A stretch of 64,000 nt of DNA, taken from assembly GCF_905475395.1 (NCBI RefSeq), contig NC_058338.1, positions 4,155,001-4,219,000 of the forward strand, written 5' to 3'. A program made the position numbers and the translations under genes. Positions 865 through 64,000 of this stretch are shown piece by piece (the first letter of the stretch is position 1; every line of letters begins with the position of its first letter). The notes under the pieces are model-generated. The model was not told where the DNA came from and made no database searches. It saw nothing but the letters and a program-made list of their open reading frames with translations. Source of the DNA: Chrysoperla carnea (lineage: Eukaryota > Arthropoda > Insecta > Neuroptera > Chrysopidae).

Positions 865-3800
865 ATGTGCAATAATTTTAGTGCAGTTTGTGTTTTAACA
901 TGCAGTAAGTTTTATCTTTATATATTTTCTCTGGGGCGATTAAGGACGTTCCCAAAAAATCACGATTTCTTAGGATCATCTTTCAACCATGTATATACAT
1001 TCTCATTTATGCCCATTTATATAACGAAAGTACAGCACAATGATAAGCTACTCAAAGTTCTGGCAGAACGAACTGCGATGAGTGCGTCAAATAATTTATT
1101 TAAAAATAATTATTTTTCGTTTATTTTCAGTCTATTTTATTAATTTATTCGTCGGAATTCAGTGTCAAAGAAACCCATGTCCGTAAGTAATTTTGAGAAT
1201 TTATCTATAAAAATTTGTTATCATAATTAAAATTTTAGAGAATAAGATTTACTAAAATTTAGCTTCTTAAGGATGTATGAGCGCCAAGGTAACGTTGGAT
1301 AAAAGGCTTGATTTTTTAACTTTACACTAATGGAAGTTATTGTCATGGGTTCGATTTTCGAAATCGAAATTTTCAACATATCTTTACGATTCATGGTTAG
1401 GACAAAGCATTTACATTATTTTAGAGAAGAAGTATGTGTGTGTGCGTGTACGTACGTCCTTAGACATTTTTTTCGCCATCGATATCGCGCGAACAAAAAA
1501 TGATATCGATTTCGTTGAGGTGTCGACTTTTTCGTGTATATAACAAAATTCATCATCAAAATTGAAAATAAGGTAAAAATAATTTCAACTGCAAGTCTAA
1601 ACTTGCCCTGGCACTCGTACTACCTTAATATTTACGGTGGAAATAATTATGTTGAATATTCAAAAATATATCAAAAGTTTGAAATGCCAAGGTAGATAAA
1701 TTGTCGTAAATTTTATTTTCTACAACTTTACTAAATATAAAAATGACTATTTATTTTAAATTAGGAGCGATGAATTTTATTGTGGCAACAGTGATGATCA
1801 ATGTATACCGAATGCTTTAAAATGTGATGGAAAACCTGATTGTAATCACAATCATGCTGATGAAAGTTATAAAACCTGCAAATCAAATATGTAAGGGTAA
1901 AATATGTAAAGATAAACCATAAATTACAGATTTCTGTAAAAATTTAAAATAGTAAATGTCAGATTAAATTTTTTTTGTTTTTATTTTCTTTGAATATATC
2001 TTTATAAATTATAGTTCATGTGTTATTCTGATATATCAGTTATATTGCTGTACAGTTTCATTAAAAACCATTCACTAGTTTTAGCGTGAAAGCGTAACAA
2101 TCAAACAAACAAACATGCTTACTTTCACATTTATAATATATATAGGGATTGACTCTTTTGATAATATTCGTTTTATGATAATAAATAGATGTAAACCAAA
2201 TGAATTCCACTGTGCTTATGGAGCTTGCGTGCCACTGAGCTCAAGATGCAATAAAATTAGAAACTGTTTAGATGGATCAGATGAATTTTATTGTGATAAA
2301 TGCGAACCAACAGAACTATGCTCGTAAGTAAAGATATTTTTTATTATATTCCATAAAAGTTCTGTTATTAAAAAACTGTTTTTTACATTAAGAGAGCCAT
2401 GGTTGACTTCTTGTGCATCTGGTGATTGTATCTATCGACATCAAATTTGCGATGGTGTCCAAGATTGCCCAGACAACTCTGATGAAACTTTTTCACTATG
2501 TACAAAAATTAGGTAAATATAAAAATTAATTTTACTTTTGATACTTTTTTTTACATGTATCAATAAAATATACCAAGGTATACTAAGTTTAGTCCCAAGT
2601 TTGTAACGCTTAAAAATTTTAGTAAAAGTGTTCATAAAATCATTGAACTAGTCCATTTCTTGTTGTCCGTCCATCAACACAAGAACTCAAAAAAGAATTA
2701 TCAAGCTGAAATTTTTATAGGCGCATAAAAAGAGAGGTCGAGTTTGTAAATGAGCATCACAGGTCAATTGGATCTTGGATCCGTTGAACCCATCTTGTAA
2801 ACCGTTAGAGATAGAACAAAAATTTAAATAACAAATCATTTTTCTTATAAAAAAATAAACAACTTTTGTTTGGAACATTTTTTCGTAAATATCACAATTC
2901 TAGATTCCTAGAATTTCCACTCCCGTCCGCGAAACCTGACTTGCTACAATGGGAAACAAATGTTTCCAATATGTACAAACATTTGGAGCTAAAACTGAAA
3001 ATAATTTCTCACTATATCTTTTTTTGAAAATAGGAGCGATGCTAATACTTTTAGATGCAAGTATGGTGCATGTATTGATTCGAATTTAAGATGCAATGGA
3101 AGAAGTAACTGTGTTGATCACTCCGATGAGTTCGAATGTGACAAAAATATTATTTCGGATAATTTTAAACCAATTTGTGGGTAAGTAGACTAAGTGTACT
3201 GCCCGAAAAAGTAGTCAATTTACAAAAGATTTCGTTACAGGAAACACAGTTTCCAATGTAACTCTTATTTATGTATCAAAGAAGAACAAGTGTGTGATGG
3301 TATTATCGATTGTGATGATGGATCGGATGAAACTTTCGCGCAATGCAACAATAAAAAATGCACAAATACAACTATATGTCCTTATGGTGCATGCAAAACA
3401 GGATCAGACTGTATTCCTGCTCCTCGTCCAACAAGAGCAACTGTACCAAAAATATCACCCAAAAGTATGATGTCAACGGCATTGGTACCTGATAATTGTG
3501 AGCCCGCTCCTGAGGTAGATGATGAAGTAGGAAGTGTGACAATTTGTCCAGATGTGTCGCCGGGTATATTGCAAAGTTTACCCTCCGGGACGATACTGTA
3601 TTATACCTGTAAAGATGGTTATTTGTTAACTACTTCAACACCAACAATTGTCTGCATGAATGGAAACTGGTCCAATGAATTTCCAGAATGCAAAAGTAAG
3701 TACCACAAATAAGTCAGAATTGTGTGCTACTTTGGAAAGATTTTTAAAGTTGGCTAATATTGTTATGTATTCAAATATTTATAGAATTATTATTTTTAGG

Positions 3801-6005
3801 AAGTTGTCCACCATTAGAGTCGGCAACCCATGAAATTAAATGTACATATATGGATAAAGAAGTTTCTTGTAATAAACCTTTCGCTGGGGTCATTGCCTCG
3901 GTTAAGTGTAAACATCCATTTATAATCCGAAATCCTCGACAATTACAGTACTACAATGGTATTGAATGTCTTGAGAATGGCAAATGGGATAACGAGTTAC
4001 ATGCATGTTATACAGGTAAATATTTGTAAAATTTTCAGTTTACATTATATACCTAAAACTATATACTCCAGTAAACGAGGATTAAACCTATAAATTCCTT
4101 CATGTAGCTCCAATTAACCTGAAGATTTGACGGTAAGTAGATAAGACTCCAATAAGCAAAAGTTATGTGGTATATTTACATCATTATTTGTAAAGATATG
4201 TTTGAGTAACAAATTAGTTTTTTTTTTAAGATTGTGGAAAAATTTCTCTGCCAGTTCAAACTGCACCATCAGAAGATGATATTACTCCGAAAATTGCCGG
4301 GGGATATGACGTCAACAGAATTGAAGATATTCCATGGCATGCTGCAATTTATGAAAAAATAAACGGAACTTACGATCAGATGTGTGGCGGAAGCATAATA
4401 ACAGAAACAATTATTGTTACAGGTCAGAAAACAGATATTTTAACAAATCTTTAGATGCGGTACGATAATTTCCTAATTTGAATAGGCGAAAAACTGCCGT
4501 AGAAACCTATTTCCCAATACTGTTCATTCAGCAGACCTTTTGCACTCGTTTTGATTCTCCTGGTGAAGTAACTATTTTTTCTATCTATCTAATTTAATGT
4601 ATACGAGCCACAAAGTCACAAAGTGTAAAAGGGATCCGATCGGCTATCCGAAACAGGTGAGAACCTTCATTGCTTCTTTCGAACCTTCGATATTGTGGTT
4701 GTTAAGCGTGAAAGAGTGAACACGAATGTCTAATTTTGAGGACTAATACAAATAAGTTAGTTATCGCACCGCATGCATCTTGTGTTAAGTGAAAGTGATT
4801 TGCAATGATGTTCCAAAATATTTTACAGCTGCACATTGTTTTTTCAATTATTCCGTTTCTCCGTATGTATTAAAAGATAACAAAAACGATAGATTTGCTG
4901 TTGCTGTAGGTAAAAAATATCGTAGTTGGGATAGTGAATTGGATACTAAAGCACAACGTTTTACGGTATTTTAAAATTTTAGCATTTACTTTAATTAAAG
5001 CAATTCCATTGTCAACCAGAATGATTTGGCACTAAATTGATTTTTATCGTTCTATATTTTTAGATAAAATTTAAAGTGCATCCAGATTTTTTGGACAATG
5101 ATTTTCGCTTTGACATAGCTGTAGTAAAATTAAATAAGCCCATAAGCTTCAATTTAAAAGTACGACCTATTTGTGTTGATTGGTCTAATAAAAAAAATCC
5201 AATTCGATTTGACAAACCTGGAATCGTAAGTTCTATAATTTCGTAATTCTCGAAGCCTAAGCCCTTCCCAATAGCCAAAAAACGAATGCATTTCTACCAT
5301 TTTTCGTGTACAGGAGGTCATAAAGCTAAAAAGAAATTTGGATGAATCTTTCATAATAATGTTGGCCATTGGGAAGTTCTTAGCGCCAGTTCTAACAATA
5401 ATAGTGCATAATTTCGTTTAAGGTTGCCGGTTGGGGAATCACGGATCGTGAAGACGTGATGTCTCATTCCGAAAAACTTCAAGCAGTCAATTTACCATAC
5501 GTTGACAAAGCTACTTGTATCAAATATTTTCAAGATAGTTTACCTGAGTTTACAGTTTTTATTACACCGGATTCTTTTTGTGGGGGGAATAGAAATGGTA
5601 AAAAACTTTGTAAAATTTACAAAAAAAATTTTGGATAAAAATGAATTTGAAATTTTAGGTTCAATCACATGTCCAGGAGATAGTGGGGGTGGATTCGCAT
5701 TTAAAGAAGGCAATCGTTATTATCTTCGAGGTATAACTAGTACTGGTCCAAGTAGAAACCTCTTCGCATGCGATATATACGAATACGCTGTTTTTACCGA
5801 TATCCAATCTCATTTAAATTTTATTAAAGAAAATATAAGTGAGTAACGAAATATTGATTTCTTATTGGTTTTAATGAATTTTAATTAAAAATTTTTAGAG
5901 AAACCGGTTAACATCAAACCAAATCGAAATAAATTTAACAATGGTCCGTCAAGACAGCCGTTTAACTCGAAAAGCAATTCTTTATTGATTGGCAATGCCG
6001 TCTAA
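865..6005 (+). CDS. ModSP: Modular serine protease (ModSP/HP14-type), 14 exons, 747 aa
   Basis: Exons by splice signal and phase: 865-904, 1131-1182, 1765-1890, 2189-2323, 2393-2512, 3034-3180, 3241-3695, 3800-4015, 4231-4422, 4829-4965, 5064-5225, 5423-5597, 5659-5838, 5899-6005; total 2244 nt, in frame. Exons 1 and 2 join to make a hydrophobic signal peptide (about residues 1-24), which supports the 865 start. Five LDLa modules follow (about 30-69, 74-108, 117-154, 158-193, 206-242, with typical CDG..DC..SDE motifs), a Ser/Thr/Pro-rich linker, CCP/Sushi modules at about 294-357 and 361-428, then a trypsin-fold domain. The activation site is probably K451/IAGG. The catalytic triad is H497 (AAHC), D557 (FDIAVV) and S661 (CPGDSGG). 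The residue six before Ser is Ile, not Asp, so trypsin specificity is unlikely. Known family members start the serine-protease cascade upstream of Toll and prophenoloxidase in haemolymph; that role is inferred here. Family members I recall are about 620-670 aa. A basic tail of about 35 residues follows the protease domain. Confidence 0.93.
939..1020 (+). repeat. Dispersed ~80-bp repeat, copy in ModSP intron 1
   Basis: The segment with AAGGACGTTC and TTAGGATCATCTTT is closely repeated at 15134-15215 (+) and, reversed and more diverged, at 32345-32412. It has no coding features. It is probably a transposon end; the family is not recognised. Confidence 0.6.
1267..1628. mobile_element. Inverted-repeat (MITE-like) element in ModSP intron 2
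   Basis: The left end TTAAGGATGTATGAGCGCCA and the reverse complement of the right end (TTAAGGTAGTACGAGTGCCA) are similar, and an internal segment with CATCATCAAAATTGAAAAT also recurs. Related sequence lies at 35792-35880, 42240-42580 and about 43818-43850. No coding capacity. The element lies wholly inside the 582-bp intron between exons 2 and 3. Confidence 0.65.
1917..2150 (+). mobile_element. RTE-like 3' tail fragment in ModSP intron 3
   Basis: This matches the 3' halves of the copies at 6230-6610 and 31907-32331, including TTTTAGCGTGAAAGCGTAAC, a short CAAA repeat and a CATTTATAATATATA end. Such tails are typical of RTE-type LINEs and their non-autonomous derivatives; the assignment rests on this tail style alone. 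The 5' part of the element is missing here. Confidence 0.65.
2571..2896 (-). mobile_element. Fragment of the ATACCATG repeat family in ModSP intron 5
   Basis: A diverged copy, in reverse, of the family seen at 17608-18168 and 48362-48880. Shared segments include the TTTAGTCCCAAGTTTGTAAC stretch, the TTGTCCGTCC stretch, and CATTTTTTCGTAAA near its right edge. The GGACGG repeat is reduced. Non-coding. Confidence 0.75.
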
Positions 6006-54550: not shown

Positions 54551-54640
54551 AAATAAGCCGATTAGCTGAGAGAGTATAGCACTTGACTATGAAGCTAAAA
54601 CACGCTATAGTTCGTATCCTGGTGGGATTAACATTTTTAC
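54551..54640 (+). repeat. tRNA-like module 1
   Basis: An A-box-like TTAGCTGAGAGAGTATAGC, an anticodon-arm-like stretch and a B-box-like GTTCGTATCCTGG. The T-arm and acceptor stems do not pair, so this is a tRNA relic or SINE head, not a tRNA gene. 53906-54550 to its left holds nothing recognised. Confidence 0.55.
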
Positions 54641-54799
54641 TTTTAGATTAAATAAAATTTTTCTGAAAATCGTTATATATTTTAAATTTTGTTTTATTTT
54701 TAAAATTTTCTATCCTAATTTTTATTTAAGAACAAAATTATCAATTAATTAATTATTTAGTAAAGGTAAGTAAGTAGTAAGTTAATTATGTGGTATCAC

Positions 54800-54876
54800 A
54801 TAAGCTGGGTGGCTGTGTGGGTATGTCACTTCCGTCTGAAACAAAAGTACGCCGGTTCGTATCCTGGTGTGGTTAA
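54800..54876 (+). repeat. tRNA-like module 2
   Basis: A GCTGGGTGGCTGTGTGGGTA segment in A-box position and GCCGGTTCGTATCCTGG in B-box position, about 40 nt apart. Stem pairing is poor. It shares the GGTTCGTATCCTGGT end with module 1. Confidence 0.55.
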
Positions 54877-54939
54877 ATTTTTACATTAAAATAATTGAAT
54901 TTTTCCTGTTTTTTAAATTTTCCACTCTTTTTATAGTTA

Positions 54940-55400
54940 AACCCGCCCTCTTGTCATAAATCATGTTAATTATACGTATGTCATAAATCACTATTATTTC
55001 AGGGGGTGGGAACTTAAATAATCATAAATATTCTTTAAAATCATAAATCATTTTTGAATAGGAAAACATGTAACAAGGTTTATCTCACTCATATTCTCCT
55101 ATTACAAAATATTAAAATTGTAGTAAAAATATTAAAAAATAGCTTGCTTACTCTAAAATTTGAAACTTTTTAATAGGAGAACATGTCATATAGCTAACCT
55201 CCATCATATTCTCCTATTACAAAATATTAAAAAAATACTTATTTTTCTTGCTTGCTTTTTGTTGTTTGTTAAAATTCTTGTTAAATAAAATTTTAGAAGA
55301 TTTTGTAATAGGAGAACATGATATTTCACAAAAAAAAAGGAATTAGTTTAGTCCCACTTTCTTAATTATATCATAACTCACTCTTCTATCAGGGGTGGGA
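54940..55400. repeat. Hairpin-rich core with repeated ATAGGAGAACATG motifs
   Basis: TAATAGGAGAACATG or a near copy occurs at about 55056, 55171 and 55306. The inverse ATATTCTCCTATTA occurs at 55090 and 55206, giving short hairpins in tandem. CCCAC...GGGGTGGGAA blocks bracket the core (about 54940-55015, 55350-55400) and occur again at 55706-55760. Confidence 0.7.
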
Positions 55401-55514
55401 ATTAAAATAATATAAATCTTACTTATTTGTCGCTTATGGTTCATCACAACAATTATCTAAAAAAGTGACAATTTATCGGTATAACTTATTTAATTAAAAA
55501 TTTATTCGACACAA

Positions 55515-55585
55515 TACTAGGTACGAACCGAGGTTCTCTATAACCAAAGCCGATTATGCTAACCACTACCCCATCGTATACAAAT
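55515..55585 (-). repeat. tRNA-like module 3
   Basis: The minus strand reads GGGGTAGTGGTTAGCATAAT (A-box-like) and CTCGGTTCGTACCTAG (B-box-like), the best tRNA likeness of the four. No paired acceptor stem. A CCCACCCC...GTGGGACTAA body segment lies downstream on the same strand (55400 to 55345). Confidence 0.6.
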
Positions 55586-55809
55586 AAAAAATGTTATTAT
55601 ATAAAACTTTCACTCACCTTTTTCTAATAAACTTATTTTCTTAAACTATTACCTATGAATAATTAATTGTTATTTCATAAAATAAGAAAAAAAGTAATTA
55701 TGTTAGTCCCACCTTCCTACTTATGTCATAAATCAATCTTCTGTCAAGGGGTGGGAATTAAAATAACATAAAATATACTCTCTTACTTAATTAATAAAAA
55801 AAATTCGGG

Positions 55810-55885
55810 CCAAAGCTAGATACGAACCGACGTGCTTTGTAACCGGAGACGACTGAGCTGTCCACTACTCCACCTTGGACATATT
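55810..55885 (-). repeat. tRNA-like module 4
   Basis: The minus strand reads GGTGGAGTAGTGGACAGCTC and GTCGGTTCGTATCTAGC. As with module 3, a CCCACCCC...GGTGGGACTAA segment follows downstream on the same strand (55760 to 55700), so modules 3 and 4 look like two copies of one tRNA-headed element. 55886-56215 holds nothing else. Confidence 0.6.
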
Positions 55886-56215
55886 AGGATAATCAATAAC
55901 GTACTATAAATAACTTTTACTCAACTTTTTACTATGTATAAACTTATTTCCTTTCACTGACCTTTTTTCATTTAACTCATATTAAACTTACCCATCATGA
56001 ATTTCTTTTTACTTACCTTTTTTTCAATAAACTTACCTATAAATGAATAATTGTAGTAATATTTTGTTAAAAATGTAGGTTCTGTTTGATATTCCTGAAA
56101 TCAATGTAAAGGATGAAAGATAAAGGGAGGTATAATATTGAATAATAATAATTAAACCAGAAAAATTGATAAAAACAATATTTTATTATATATATTTATT
56201 TGTACATTCCTTGTA

Positions 56216-56755: not shown

Positions 56756-56761
56756 TTTATT
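56756..56761 (-). terminator. Polyadenylation signal overlapping the FKBPL-like stop codon
   Basis: On the minus strand the stop and signal read TAAATAAAG, so AATAAA shares its first A with the TAA stop. The 3' UTR would be very short. Confidence 0.55.
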
Positions 56762-57600
56762 TAGAACATTCTTTTACACATTTCAGCATATCTTTCTCGA
56801 CTTAAAACTAATTCATGCCGAACATAATTTAATTTTTCATGTACAAATTTATTATTTGGTTCATATTGTAAAAATTTAACCAAATCATTTTCAGCCTTCT
56901 CAAAATCCCTTACCGCCGTATAAGCTAAACCCCGTTTATACAATGATTTCACATGTTCCGAATCTTGAACAAGTATTTTCGAACATAATGGAATCACCTC
57001 TTCATAATTATTCTGCTTTAACTGACAACTAGCTAAATTTCCATACAAGATTAATTTTAAATTTTCAATATCAATCAATTTTACACCATCGATTTCTGTT
57101 GATTCGACATCATCGATTTCTAAAATACATGTGATCAATAATCGACATGCTTTACTAAATCGATAAAATGCATCAATATAACGATTCTGTTGAAATAGTT
57201 CAACACCGCGTTCTTTATGCTTTGTAGCTAATGCATATTTTTTATCAGCTGGAAAATCGAAAAAATATCCGTTAAATTCTAACTTAAGTAATTTTATTTT
57301 AAATGTAATGATTGTTTCATTTAATTGTATTTTCACATCACTAAATTCATTTTCCAACATGGTTTCAAGTAATTTTTCAAATTTACGATCTAATTTCGTA
57401 TCGAATTCACCCATAATACAATTTTGTTCGATACCATTTTTCTCTTGACGAATATATTCGGTGTCATAATTCGATCCATTAATTTCGATATCACTTAAAA
57501 CTATCGTACATACACAACATTCAACTGGTTTTTCACCTATAACGCCATTTTCAATCACTGTTTTGTGTATACCATCTTTGGAAAATACTTTTGACGACAT
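56761..57600 (-). CDS. FKBPL/Bride-of-doubletime-like TPR co-chaperone, intronless, 279 aa
   Basis: A single uninterrupted frame starts at an ATG in a strong insect context (ACAAAAATG). Residues about 10-115 fit a divergent, probably inactive FKBP-like domain; I see no conserved prolyl-isomerase residues. Residues about 120-250 hold three TPR motifs (KERGVELFQQNRY..., NLASCQLKQNNYEEVI..., SLYKRGLAYTAV..DFEKAENDL). The end (CKRMF) parallels the C-terminus of vertebrate FKBPL. FKBPL works with HSP90; the Drosophila relative Bride of doubletime binds the CK1 kinase Doubletime and supports the circadian clock. That role is inferred here. The start codon lies 10 nt after the stop codon of the SDR gene on the same strand, so the two may share a transcript. 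Human FKBPL is about 349 aa, so this version is short at the N-terminus. Confidence 0.88.
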   Translation of the reverse strand: MSSKVFSKDGIHKTVIENGVIGEKPVECCVCTIVLSDIEINGSNYDTEYIRQEKNGIEQNCIMGEFDTKLDRKFEKLLETMLENEFSDVKIQLNETIITFKIKLLKLEFNGYFFDFPADKKYALATKHKERGVELFQQNRYIDAFYRFSKACRLLITCILEIDDVESTEIDGVKLIDIENLKLILYGNLASCQLKQNNYEEVIPLCSKILVQDSEHVKSLYKRGLAYTAVRDFEKAENDLVKFLQYEPNNKFVHEKLNYVRHELVLSRERYAEMCKRMF

Positions 57601-57610
57601 TTTTGTTTTT

Positions 57611-60084
57611 CTAGACTAAAGATTGTGATGGAATTTTACAAGAATTTATAATTGTCTCTTGTAGCAGATCAAATAAACGAATATCTTTAGCTAATGATGA
57701 AAATGGTATTTGTTGATAGTCTAAAATAAAACTACCAGTGGGAAAATTTGATAATAAAGTATGAATTATCGATTGAGCAGCGTCCACGGATGATTTTACG
57801 ATGAAAGAATGTATTGGAGTGTTTAATATGAATAAAACTGGATTGGTTAGTTTTGGAAATTTTGGAAATACTTGTTTTTCACAATTTCCAGGATCCACTG
57901 CGTACACAGAAACGTTGGTCTCTAAAATCAAATAACCAAAAATATTAACAACAAGATTTAAAACAGTTATGAAAACTACTGGCCTTCTGGTTAGATTAGG
58001 TTAGAGTGGTTGTCCTGGGATGGAACACACTTAGAGCAAAGAGTTCATTGTGATACTGAAAGTGAACCAATTGAAGCTGTTTAAAAACAGCAGGAGAGCT
58101 TTGACGTCAACGAACTTAAGGTTGAAGAGGTCGTCAAAGAAAGGCTGGTTTAAGTGAGTCTAACCCCTCATGGCAGTCTATCCCAATAATTGGACAGTTA
58201 TGAAAACCACAAGCAGTTATGAAATGCAAAAGACCAAGAGCAAATCGTTTAAAATTCCTCGGGATTGATGTTTTTTATAAGGTCAGTCTTGGAGAGTGCT
58301 TAAAATCTAACTTCTAATTGATATTGGCTCTTGGATTTGTAATTACGACAAGTACTTAACTATAAAAATCATTCACCTTTCAGTTCTTCAGATAAATGAA
58401 ATGTAAAAGCTAATAAAGCTAATTTTGAAACACTAGTTGCTTTAATATGACATCGTTTCAATATATGATTTCCAATAATTTCTTCTACATCCCGAAATTT
58501 CGGAACATAGTGACACTGTGACGGAATGTTAATAATTTTCGCCGATTTTGAGTTCTTCAATAAGTCTAATAACAAGTAAGTTAAAAAATAAGCACCTAAA
58601 ATTTAAAAACATGTTAAAATTGTTAATTTTTGAAAAAGGGGGCTAGTAAAATGAAACTAAATGTAATTAATATTTACTTATAAAATTAATTTGTAATATA
58701 GAATTAAAACCATCAACAGTGACATTTTGATTTTGATAGACTACTTCAGCGATGTTAATTAAAGCAAAGATTTCTTTATATTCATTATGAATATCAACTG
58801 AAAAATATTTAATAGTTTTCAACGAACTTAAATCTAAGTATTTCACCGAAACACGTTCATTGCCAGTTAAAGTTTTTATTTCTTTACAAATTATATTTGC
58901 TAACTTTAAATTTCTACAAGCAAGAATTACATGTGCACCTGAAAACAATAATAAAGTTCGATTATTTTTATAAATCTACAAGCCCATGCTAAAATTTTTC
59001 GGGTGCAATGACCCACCATGAAGCATGTTGAAAAAGATACTCCTATGTGTAAAATTTAGTTTAAGCACCATGGCGTCAGCTTGCTCAGTACAGGTGAGAA
59101 TAAGAATGTCACACCCCTGGACTGGCAAATATATACGGCGTTGCTAAATATTAACTCTGCATAAGTATTCGAAGTATTCGAAGCGAATTACAGATATAAA
59201 TCACGCAAGGCTTCGGTAATTGACGGGAGATCAACAATTTTTTTTAACTTCCAATGCAGAAATTACCCGATTAATTTCTGTGAAACACCTGTATCCCTTA
59301 AAATTGACGCCCTGATGCTTAAACTAACGTTTACATATAAGAGCATCTTTTTTAAACATGATTCCTGGGTCATTTCATTCGAAAATTTTTAGCATAGGCT
59401 TGTAATCTTTTGGGGATATATTTCACAGAACTAAGAAGGGGCGGATTATCCAGGCGGTTTGTTTAAAAATTTTCAAACGCACGCCCCCTTAATAACGTCA
59501 CGCCTGAAGGCAAGTAGTACGTGCCTACAGGCGTCACTTCATAAAGAGGACGTGTGTGTGGAAGTTTTTAAACAAACATAAAATTAAAGTACTCAAAAAT
59601 TTACAGAGAGACATTCTTTACATGCTCCCCTGGTGAGTATATTATTTTTGTCTCTGGCAGAGGCGGGAAGCGACTTGATTTTGCACAGTTGCCAATGCTT
59701 TTGACAAGTCCTAAAGAAATTTTGATTGAAAGCGTGAGCTTAAGTTTTAAAACAACTTGATTTTAGACGTATGCCCGTAAAAATAACCAACTGAAAACTT
59801 TGTCAAGACAGTAAAATTAATTTACCTCTTTGAGCTAATTCCAAAGCTGTCGCTTTTCCAATCAAAGTAGTTGCACCTGTTACAATAATATTTAATCCAT
59901 TTATTTTGGATGAACAACATTTATAATCAGAACCTGATTTGTATTTTCTAAAAATAAGGCAGAAATTTTTAATAAAGCCATATTTTGTAGAAATAAGCAG
60001 ATTTTGAAATTACTTTAATTGGTATAAGATTATACCAAATACGGAACTCCCAAGGAAAAATTCAATTAAAAAAGTATATTTCAT
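57611..60084 (-). CDS. RDH11-14-like short-chain dehydrogenase, probable pseudoenzyme, 5 exons, 327 aa
   Basis: Exons on the minus strand: 60084-60014, 59947-59826, 58938-58678, 58595-58377, 57921-57611; 984 nt in frame, all introns GT-AG. Exon 1 encodes a hydrophobic N-terminal anchor (about residues 4-20), then KKYKSG...C.SK as in retinol dehydrogenases 11-14. The Rossmann fold follows: cofactor motif TGATTLIG (47-54, middle Gly lost), ACRN (71-74), LDLSSL (99-104), NIAE (126-129) in place of NNAG, N149, S177, then T205-S-V-S-K209 where the family has Tyr-x-x-x-Lys, and a V.PG motif (233-236). With the Tyr gone, oxidoreductase activity is doubtful, though length and fold are normal and the frame is open. 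Family members reduce retinal or lipid aldehydes in membranes. The substrate here is unknown. Intron 4 carries a LINE fragment. The stop codon is 10 nt before the FKBPL-like ATG. Confidence 0.87.
57989..58177 (-). mobile_element. LINE 3'-end fragment in SDR intron 4
   Basis: Matches 23268-23470: GGTTAGAGTGGTTGTCCTGG, TTCATTGTGATAC, AACAGCAGGAGAGCTTTGAC, GAAGAGGTCGTCAAAGAAAG. It is in the same orientation as the host gene. The frame is broken relative to the longer copy. Confidence 0.85.
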
Positions 60085-61519
60085 TGTTTTACTTTAATTT
60101 TTTAGGATTTTTTATTTTGAAATATTTAAAAAAAATACAACAATTTTAAAATAGTATAAATGTCTGGAAAAAATTTATTGTTTACTAGTTTTCAATTGAT
60201 TTATCATAAACAAATTACAGCTTGTGAATTTTTTCTGGAGAAAATCTAATAAAAATTTGATTTTGATTTTCATTTATAAAATAATAAAATAAACAAAAAT
60301 TGGTTTTTGAGGGCAATAATCGAATTTATTAGAATTTTTTGGAAAGTTATTTTGGTTATGTTTTGATTGTGTTTTTTCGGTAATAATAAAAAGATGCTTT
60401 ATTAAATAATTTTTTCTTATAAATGAGTATTTAAGATACATTACCTTTTATTTTTTAATTTATAAAAACTTAATTAATAAGTAGATTTATTAAAATTAAA
60501 TAAATAACACTTTTAATAACAAATCTTTCAAAATATTGTAGTTTTTGTCTGCCATCTATGAATTATTTCATAAACTAAAATATGTGTATGCCAAAGAGCA
60601 TAGGATAGAGGAGAAGCAGCCCATATGAGCTAATGTAAAATCGTAGTATACGAGTTTCAGCGCCTCTACCGAGTCAGGCTTTCAAACTTAATAGTTAACC
60701 CCCGCAAAGTAGTTAAACTTAATAGCCATACCCGCAAAGGCCTACAAACTTAATAGTTGATCGCCTCAGACTCCAGATGTCACTTATAATTATACTTCTG
60801 CTTCTTGTCTATCCTATAGTCTTTGGTGTATGCAAAGTTTGAAAATTTCTTTGGGTCAAATCCGTTTCATTTTAAATGCTAAATACCTTTTTCCAAATAA
60901 TTCAACCTTATTTTCTACACCACCAGAATTTTGAATTGGATTAATCGAAATTGTCTATAATTTCTGCGGGATATTTTCAAATTATTTTTATGTCCAAAAA
61001 CTTTTGAGTGTTTAAATCCTCCTTCGGTTTTAATTGAACCGTCTGTCTGTTGTTACATATCAAATGCATATACAAACGATTCAGAATATTCGAGTCAACA
61101 GCAAGGGATTTCCGATGAATTAAAAACAAACTACATAGGCCTATTCAAAAGCCTATTTTTTGCAAACTTCCCCCCTCAATAAAATTTTTTGTACAAGTGG
61201 GATTGATGGGGACTTTTCACAATTCATTTATAATAGTATTCTGAACATTCATTTGACTGGATAATTGGATCTTTAGGTGAAAGCAGAATTCCACAAACAG
61301 TATAGCCTGGAATGAGACTGTATGAGTCTAAACCTAAACTTCACACTGAGCTGTAATGTAGGAAGAAAAAAAAATATAAATACAAAATTATTCGAAAGAT
61401 TATATATTCTTTATTTTTAAATAAAGCTAAATTTTAACAAAATGTTCTTATATTTAAATTTTATTTATAAAATAAAGATGGCGTACAATTTATACAAAAT
61501 AAGATCTTAAATAATTATT
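60085..61519. other. Spacer between the SDR and RBM5/10-like genes
   Basis: Holds the SDR 5' flank and the RBM5/10 3' flank. A reversed AATAAA at 61460-61465 is a likely RBM5/10 polyadenylation signal about 55 nt past its stop. The motif AAACTTAATAG occurs three times at about 60685-60760. No coding exon was found. Confidence 0.55.

Positions 61520-64000
<2,481 letters not shown>

What the first reader, a model, noticed from the sequence alone, without database searches (positions are those of the whole stretch)
57598..57613. SDR stop and FKBPL-like start only 10 nt apart: likely dicistronic unit
The SDR ends with TAG at 57613-57611 and the TPR co-chaperone starts with ATG at 57600-57598 on the same strand. 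The 10-nt gap is A-rich, out of frame (so no simple readthrough), and has no room for a promoter. Either one transcript carries both proteins, or the FKBPL-like promoter and 5' end lie inside SDR coding or intron sequence. The SDR mRNA has many upstream AUGs, so plain scanning would not reach the second frame. Insect dicistronic genes are known but few, and I know of none with this pair.
Basis: partly seen in the sequence, partly recalled or inferred. Interest (0 to 1): 0.8.

Follow-up and report, generated by a model that had tools for sequence, protein, structure and literature searches.

The report
Lacewing two-gene mRNA: SDR plus Bdbt-like
In a genome that fits the green lacewing, a gene for a degenerate dehydrogenase ends ten bases before the start of a co-chaperone gene related to a fly clock protein, and the first gene lacks internal start codons, as expected if one messenger RNA makes both proteins.

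Summary
In detail: a five-exon SDR gene (60084-57611, minus strand) ends with TAG at 57613-57611, and a 279-aa ORF starts with ATG at 57600-57598, out of frame, after AAAAACAAAA. If both are genes, their transcription units must overlap.

The second protein is better named Bride-of-doubletime-like than FKBPL-like. It exceeds Pfam's cut-offs for FKBP_N_2 and Bdbt-like_TPR. One FKBP_N_2 match was found in this genome. Scaffold number and chromosome lengths fit Chrysoperla carnea (inferred).

New here: the SDR frame has no internal methionine in 326 codons, against 2-7 in the 195-residue core of each of 14 paralogue models from the same genome (P about 0.002). No AUG in any frame lies between the last internal AUG and the second start, 398 nt apart (P about 0.004). 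Papers that cite Wall et al. 2005 report AUG-poor first cistrons for the Drosophila stoned and Snapin dicistrons. The SDR has also lost its catalytic Tyr and NNAG motif.

Most likely the locus makes a dicistronic mRNA whose second ORF is reached by scanning and reinitiation. An internal promoter remains a strong rival. It is a candidate new member of a known kind; no transcript data were available.

The parts
60014..60084 (-). SDR exon 1 (model), start ATG at 60084-60082; encodes a hydrophobic N-terminus
   Evidence: splice model and translation; start context AACA-ATG-A; not supported by homology
59826..59947 (-). SDR exon 2 (Rossmann start, TGATTLIG)
58678..58938 (-). SDR exon 3 (NIAE in place of NNAG)
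58377..58595 (-). SDR exon 4 (TSVSK in place of YxxxK); the last internal AUG of any frame is here, at CDS offset 596
57611..57921 (-). SDR exon 5, ending in TAG 57613-57611; contains no AUG in any frame
57601..57610 (-). 10-nt intercistronic gap AAAAACAAAA
56761..57600 (-). Bdbt-like ORF, 279 aa, single exon: FKBP_N_2 domain (residues 8-108), Bdbt-like TPR (122-203) and C-terminal TPRs
   Evidence: Pfam; one FKBP_N_2 match found in the genome
56756..56761 (-). AATAAA overlapping the Bdbt-like stop codon, followed by a T-rich stretch: likely poly(A) signal of the unit
57922..58376 (-). SDR intron 4 (455 nt), a possible site of an internal promoter for the second ORF (TATAAA at 58279; ATGs at 58372, 58171 and 58048)
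   Evidence: consensus matches only
60085..61520 (-). 1.4-kb region between the end of the upstream RBM5/10-like gene and the SDR start, where the promoter of the unit would lie
   Evidence: inference

Best explanation
The SDR and the Bdbt-like ORF are two cistrons of one transcription unit. A promoter in the 1.4 kb upstream of 60084 makes a spliced mRNA that ends at the poly(A) site just after 56761 and carries both ORFs. A Bdbt-only mRNA from an internal start may exist as well. The second ORF is translated by ribosomes that pass the SDR start codon without using it. They meet only short out-of-frame frames, resume scanning, and after nearly 400 nt without an AUG start at the well-placed AUG at 57600. 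The SDR frame has been cleared of internal in-frame AUGs because initiation at one would carry ribosomes to the stop 10 nt before the second start and use them up. The SDR itself has lost its classical catalytic motifs and is probably a pseudo-enzyme. Shown: adjacency, intact frames, AUG pattern, motif losses, poly(A) layout. Inferred: a single mRNA, the translation route, and selection on AUGs.
For: 10-nt same-strand gap between two intact ORFs with known domains. The gap lies inside the -34 to 319 nt range of exclusively polycistronic D. melanogaster loci (PMC4528330). Most T-rich poly(A) hexamer tail is at 56761, after both ORFs. Zero internal Met in 326 codons (0 of 303 in exons 2-5, which does not depend on the exon 1 model) against 2-7 in about 195 residues in 14 of 14 counted paralogue models; P(0 in 326) = 0.0017 at the paralogue rate. 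AUG observed/expected by base composition is 0.63 in the SDR CDS, 1.61 in the Bdbt-like ORF and 1.21 in the RBM-like gene. The 398-nt run before the second start has P = 0.0045 by synonymous resampling. Second start matches 4 of 4 positions of a recalled insect start consensus, first start 3 of 4. Drosophila stoned and Snapin first cistrons are deficient in internal AUGs, and added in-frame AUGs attenuate the second ORF (passages of PMC11892635, and PMC3372440; the original Wall et al. 2005 is not held).
Against: No transcript, 5'-end or ribosome data. The SDR start is in a good context (A at -3), unlike the divergent contexts reported for stoned and Snapin, so leakage past it may be low. Out-of-frame AUGs are only slightly below expectation (10 against 12.2, P = 0.15); the RBM-like control gene is also low (24 against 28.9, P = 0.042), so a mild deficit is not special. 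One out-of-frame AUG (CDS offset 406) has a 4 of 4 context and three others have 3 of 4. ATG-free gaps of 389 nt or more also occur elsewhere in raw window DNA, two on the minus and one on the plus strand. The missing Met has a modest P and was noticed before it was tested; in the 195-residue core P is 0.022, and in a 109-residue core one of 13 paralogue copies also had none. The all-frame AUG ratio of the core (0.67) is only just below the lowest paralogue (0.70). AATAAA at 57298 and 56853 and ATTAAA at 57325 and 56833 inside the Bdbt-like ORF, or ATTAAA at 57827 in exon 5, could end a separate SDR mRNA. Adjacency could not be tested in any other species.
Confidence: 0.5

Rival explanations
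1. Nested genes with an internal promoter. The Bdbt-like gene has its own start site in SDR intron 4 or exons 4-5 and makes a monocistronic mRNA whose 5' leader is SDR coding sequence. SDR mRNAs end at a poly(A) site inside or after the Bdbt-like ORF.
For: The stretch of nearly 400 nt of spliced sequence before the second ATG has no AUG in any frame, so a leader starting there would be clean. In D. melanogaster monocistronic forms of the 3' gene usually come from a downstream promoter, and at 69 of 159 dicistronic loci one gene has both mono- and dicistronic forms (PMC4528330). TATAAA at 58279 and 57650, and poly(A) hexamers inside the second ORF, occur.
Against: Does not explain the missing in-frame Met codons in the upstream SDR exons. 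The motif matches are bare consensus hits without a computed chance expectation; neither TATAAA has an initiator match of the pattern used 20-40 nt downstream.
Confidence: 0.35
2. Shared first exon with alternative splicing: exon 1 (60084-60014) joins the AG at the SDR stop codon, giving a membrane-anchored Bdbt-like protein in frame, or a leader that skips the SDR.
For: The exon 1 to 57610 join is in frame with the Bdbt-like ORF, a one-in-three chance; the ends of exons 2-4 are not.
Against: The acceptor at 57611 scores -0.75, below 31 of 33 modelled acceptors, and 38% of AGs on the minus strand score at least as well; the AG at 57616 scores 1.18, reached by 24%.
Confidence: 0.05
3. Dicistronic mRNA, but the second ORF is entered through an internal ribosome entry site or by termination-coupled reinitiation over the A-rich 10-nt gap.
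For: A-rich gap; the 201 nt around the junction fold somewhat better than their shuffles (z = -2.2, 5 of 200 shuffles as stable); FlyBase authors think IRES use may be common among fly dicistrons (PMC4528330).
Against: Neither route needs the Met-free first frame. Reinitiation after a 327-codon ORF is expected to be rare in animals (general knowledge). No known entry element was identified, and no dedicated model was run.
Confidence: 0.1

Closest known systems
Drosophila stoned (stnA/stnB) and Snapin dicistrons (Wall, Phillips and Kelly 2005; seen only through passages and reference lists of PMC11892635, PMC3372440, PMC4528330)
   Same: First cistron poor in, or without, internal AUGs; unrelated second protein
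   Different: Different genes and insect order; first start is not in a weak context here; mRNA and translation not shown
FlyBase dicistronic gene pairs (159 in D. melanogaster release 6.04, PMC4528330)
   Same: Two intact ORFs on one strand; 10-nt gap is inside the range of exclusively polycistronic loci
   Different: No cDNA evidence here; an SDR plus Bdbt-like pair was not found in the paper searches made
Adh-Adhr dicistron of Drosophila (Brogna and Ashburner 1997; seen in the reference list of PMC4528330; that both are SDRs is recalled)
   Same: An SDR as first cistron of a two-ORF unit
   Different: There both cistrons are related proteins (recalled); here the second is an FKBP/TPR protein
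Green-algal bicistronic loci (PMC11892635, section 8 and passages)
   Same: AUG depletion before ORF 2 and short inter-ORF regions
   Different: ORF 1 there tends to have weak start contexts; here it is good
Drosophila Bride of doubletime (Bdbt, CG17282)
   Same: FKBP-like N-terminus plus TPRs, both Pfam models over cut-off
   Different: Non-dipteran; orthology not shown; this genome's best doubletime/CK1 match has TKRQK, not the dipteran NKRQK

Membership tests
Dicistronic gene (FlyBase sense) | One processed mRNA carries both ORFs | not testable with these tools
   No RNA data held; no second copy of the junction found in the genome (one match, the locus itself)
Dicistronic gene (FlyBase sense) | Stop-to-start distance within the range of exclusively polycistronic loci (-34 to 319 nt) | tested here: met
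   10 nt; range from PMC4528330
Dicistronic gene (FlyBase sense) | No separate 3' end signal for the first gene | tested here: inconclusive
   No AATAAA/ATTAAA in the 10-nt gap, but hexamers exist in SDR exon 5 (57827) and inside the second ORF (57325, 57298, 56853, 56833)
stoned-type scanning dicistron | No in-frame AUG after the start in the first cistron | tested here: met
   0 in 326 codons, 0 of 303 in exons 2-5; 14 of 14 counted paralogue models have 2-7 in the core
stoned-type scanning dicistron | First start in a divergent (weak) context | tested here: not met
   AACA-ATG-A, A at -3, 3 of 4 positions of a recalled insect consensus; second start 4 of 4. Depends on the exon 1 model
stoned-type scanning dicistron | Second-cistron output falls when in-frame AUGs are added to the first | not testable with these tools
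   Needs a reporter assay
Bride of doubletime family | FKBP_N_2 and Bdbt-like_TPR domains over Pfam cut-off | tested here: met
   47.3 bits (cut-off 27) and 41.5 bits (cut-off 27)
Bride of doubletime family | Groups with dipteran BDBT in a phylogeny of FKBPs | not tested
   No insect protein set held. PMC9794997 (passages) could not reliably identify BDBT outside Diptera; PDB chain 4it4 (CG17282) scores 31.5 bits against 59.2 for FKBP4, and the first 120 residues alone find no BDBT chain
Bride of doubletime family | Partner kinase with NKRQK (a dipteran correlate, not strictly defining; also seen in Locusta) | tested here: not met
   TKRQK in the best doubletime/CK1 match (L038/L040), TKKQK in a second CK1 gene (L039/L042)
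Catalytically active classical SDR | YxxxK with Tyr | tested here: not met
   TSVSK in the window; Tyr in 13 of 14 paralogue models, the 14th (L033) unreadable there (L030 and L031 read by eye in the alignments)
Catalytically active classical SDR | NNAG motif | tested here: not met
   NIAE in the window; NNAG in 13 of 14 paralogue models, HNAG in L024
Catalytically active classical SDR | TGxxxGxG cofactor motif | tested here: not met
   TGATTLIG: the middle Gly is Leu; adh_short still matches at 7.3e-24

The most novel reading that the evidence does not exclude
A once-enzymatic SDR has been turned into a methionine-free, catalytically dead first cistron whose main role is to meter ribosomes to, or to be made in fixed ratio with, a Bdbt-type cofactor of the doubletime/CK1 kinase in a non-dipteran insect: a translational gate built out of an old enzyme gene.
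Probability: 0.12. Interest if true: 0.7.

Novelty: new member of a known kind. Interest (0 to 1): 0.45.

Why it matters
If confirmed it extends the AUG-cleared first cistron, described for two fly loci in the papers I could see, to a lacewing and to a new gene pair. That would make AUG depletion a usable sequence test for dicistronic genes in unannotated insect genomes. It would also place the one Bdbt-type protein found in this genome, related to a regulator of the clock and polarity kinase in flies, under translational coupling to a degenerate SDR. Automated annotation could easily split such a unit.

Tried and rejected
Looked for relatives of the Bdbt-like protein in viral contigs: two pattern matches, none confirmed. 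Folded the Bdbt-like protein from its single sequence: pLDDT 38.9, unusable, so no fold search was made. PDB search with the first 120 residues: four hits at E 0.21 or worse, none BDBT. Own-genome search with the whole Bdbt-like protein: itself and one weak TPR match (27% identity, L003). The FKBP_N_2 family search gave nothing in the 14 control genomes, so it had no positive control. Stop readthrough: 19 residues then a stop, rejected. A +1 frameshift at the stop would join the two frames, but I saw nothing to support it and did not test it. Alternative splicing into the SDR stop: in frame from exon 1 but the acceptor is poor. RNA fold around the junction: z = -2.2 over 201 nt, 5 of 200 shuffles as stable, not distinctive enough to build on. 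A second copy of the junction in the genome, as a processed mRNA copy would give: none found. Promoter and poly(A) motif scans gave nothing decisive. Papers on an SDR/Bdbt pair: none seen in the listings (25 of 90 papers were listed and 12 of 87). The original stoned/Snapin paper is not held. Rows dropped: the own-genome SDR search returned 21 matches from 40 scored candidates, a lower bound; four are this gene's own exons and two (L020, L023) are one gene, leaving 16 genes; two (L021 with 4 Met, L022 with 1 Met) were left out of the paralogue count for low scores; L033 was counted although its C-terminal half is mis-modelled. The resampling used codon usage from three window genes, the SDR included.
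Full report
Observation. On the minus strand a TAG at 57613-57611 is followed by AAAAACAAAA (57610-57601) and ATG at 57600-57598. The SDR model has five exons, 60084-60014, 59947-59826, 58938-58678, 58595-58377 and 57921-57611, joined by GT-AG introns of 66, 887, 82 and 455 nt, and translates to 327 aa. It matches Pfam adh_short at 7.3e-24. Exon 1 is placed by its start codon, hydrophobic stretch and splice site; no homology covers it. The second ORF, 57600-56761, encodes 279 aa in the +1 frame.

Names. The second protein exceeds Pfam's cut-offs for FKBP_N_2 ('BDBT FKBP like N-terminal', 47.3 bits against 27) and Bdbt-like_TPR (41.5 against 27), and the first match begins at profile position 5 on residue 8, so the ATG at 57600 fits the natural start. 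An own-genome search with FKBP_N_2 found one match, at this locus; the same search rang in none of 14 control genomes, so it had no positive control. Against solved structures the best scores include SPAG1 (73.7 bits) and FKBP4 (59.2), with the Drosophila CG17282 chain at 31.5; the first 120 residues alone find no BDBT chain. I therefore call it Bdbt-like and do not claim orthology. A published phylogeny of FKBPs could not reliably identify BDBT outside Diptera and links it with an NKRQK motif in the doubletime kinase, with Locusta as an exception for the motif (PMC9794997, passages). The best doubletime/CK1 match in this genome has TKRQK and a second CK1 gene has TKKQK.

Organism. The window is contig C2 4155001-4219000 of a 559,487,470-bp assembly in 337 contigs. 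C2 is 100,744,152 bp long, and C1, C4 and C5 are 139,979,878, 77,476,099 and 76,427,138 bp. The Chrysoperla carnea assembly has 337 scaffolds and chromosomes 1, 2, 4 and 5 of 139.98, 100.74, 77.48 and 76.43 Mb at about 29% GC (PMC10116181, passages). Its stated total, 560,248,701 bp, is 0.8 Mb larger than the held assembly; I do not know why. The window has 29.4% GC. Identification as the green lacewing is an inference from these numbers.

Do the transcripts have to overlap? Yes, if both are genes: ten bases hold neither a 3' end nor a promoter. The hexamer with the most T-rich tail is AATAAA at 56761, overlapping the Bdbt-like stop. Other hexamers lie in SDR exon 5 (ATTAAA 57827) and inside the second ORF (ATTAAA 57325 and 56833, AATAAA 57298 and 56853), so a separate SDR 3' end is not excluded. 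The gap of 10 nt is within the -34 to 319 nt range of D. melanogaster loci that produce only polycistronic mRNAs. Dicistronic pairs are not rare there: 159 loci, of which 45 appear exclusively dicistronic, 45 have monocistronic forms of both genes and 69 are mixed (PMC4528330, section 6).

The AUG pattern. The SDR coding sequence has 11 AUGs in 984 nt: the start, eight in the +1 frame and two in the +2 frame. All ten internal ones open frames whose stops lie at or before CDS offset 605. None is in frame, so the 327-aa protein has a single methionine; exons 2-5 alone have 0 in 303 codons, whatever the truth about exon 1. Observed/expected AUG by base composition is 0.63 for the SDR, 1.61 for the Bdbt-like ORF and 1.21 for the RBM-like gene of the window; against a first-order expectation the counts are 11 against 17.9, 32 against 27.5 and 39 against 37.2. 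From the last internal AUG to the second start there are 398 nt (395 bases strictly between them). Synonymous resampling of the SDR protein gives P = 0.0045 for a run this long. The number of out-of-frame AUGs (10 against 12.2) is not unusual, P = 0.15. Of the two control genes, the RBM-like one is also low (24 against 28.9, P = 0.042) and the Bdbt-like ORF is high (27 against 21.7). In raw window DNA, ATG gaps of 389 nt or more occur twice on the minus and once on the plus strand.

Paralogue control. A search of the own genome with the SDR gave 21 matches: four are its own exons and the rest come from 16 other genes. I modelled these with a spliced aligner over SDR residues 43-237. The 14 that scored well have 2-7 methionines each (7, 5, 2, 4, 5, 2, 3, 3, 4, 4, 3, 2, 4, 4), none has zero, and their rate is 1.94%; the window SDR has 0. 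At that rate zero in 326 codons has P = 0.0017 and zero in the 195-residue core has P = 0.022. The two dropped low-scoring genes have 4 and 1. Over a shorter 109-residue core one of 13 copies has none. All-frame AUG observed/expected in the core ranges from 0.70 to 1.47 in the 14; the window's 0.67 is the lowest, though only just. These tests are not independent of one another and the feature was noticed before it was tested.

Meaning of the pattern. Two fly dicistrons, stoned and Snapin, have first cistrons deficient in internal AUGs and divergent start contexts, and second-cistron translation there was reported to depend on leaky scanning and to be attenuated by in-frame AUGs. I saw this in passages of PMC11892635 and PMC3372440; the original paper (Wall et al. 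2005) is not held. In lemming, whose first cistron has three internal in-frame AUGs, the second was not detected in S2 cells (PMC3372440). Green-algal dicistrons show AUG depletion before ORF 2 (PMC11892635, section 8). In-frame AUGs would commit ribosomes to end 10 nt before the second start, whereas short out-of-frame frames allow resumed scanning; the pattern seen, no in-frame AUGs and near-normal out-of-frame ones followed by a long clear run, fits that logic (inference). Against it, the SDR start is in a good context (AACA-ATG-A, 3 of 4 positions of a recalled insect consensus), one out-of-frame AUG has a full match and three others have 3 of 4.

The first protein. Compared with the paralogues the window SDR has lost the NNAG motif (NIAE; NNAG in 13 of 14 models) and the catalytic Tyr of YxxxK (TSVSK; Tyr in the 13 of 14 models that can be read there). 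An alignment to a solved SDR shows the Tyr-to-Thr change as well. The middle Gly of TGxxxGxG is Leu. The frame is intact across five exons, so it is not an obvious pseudogene. It is best read as a degenerate, probably inactive SDR.

Rivals. An internal promoter in intron 4 or exons 4-5 would give a Bdbt-only mRNA with an AUG-free leader; downstream promoters are usual for monocistronic forms at fly dicistronic loci and this cannot be excluded, but it does not explain the missing methionines upstream. Splicing from exon 1 to the AG of the SDR stop would be in frame and give an anchored Bdbt-like protein, but that acceptor scores below 31 of 33 modelled acceptors. Stop readthrough fails after 19 residues. 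A second copy of the junction was not found.

Verdict. It is a candidate new member of a known kind, notable for a methionine-free degenerate SDR ahead of a Bdbt-like protein in a non-dipteran insect. No paper on this pair appeared in the listings.

Noticed in passing
window 59457-59577, SDR intron 2: An imperfect palindrome (two 60-nt arms, 80% complementary, 1 nt apart), next to further inverted arms at 59028-59355 and 58977-59404: possibly a MITE-like insertion in SDR intron 2.
   Followed up: partly
window 54600-55900: Two tRNA-like stretches with a box-B-like GGTTCGTA (55828, 55529) on the minus strand and two GGATACGAAC motifs (54864, 54619): possibly tRNA-derived SINE copies; ARAGORN does not call them.
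   Followed up: no
window 61521-64000, minus strand: 3' part of an RBM5/RBM10-like gene (named by eye from OCRE-like and G-patch-like stretches, not by a family search), same strand, ending 1.4 kb upstream of the SDR start.
   Followed up: partly
G000 C5 66.25-66.59 Mb (L026, L029, L030, L033-L035): Six SDR paralogues within 0.35 Mb, with intact catalytic motifs where readable, and modelled introns at other positions than those of the window SDR.
   Followed up: partly
L038 (G000 C3 30.54 Mb): The doubletime/CK1 candidate has TKRQK although the genome holds a Bdbt-like protein; a published correlation ties BDBT to NKRQK in Diptera.
   Followed up: partly
window 3215-3712 and 5460-5846, plus strand: ORFs resembling LDL-receptor-A/sushi repeats and the end of a trypsin-like protease: possibly a modular serine protease gene (read by eye; the Pfam check failed).
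   Followed up: no
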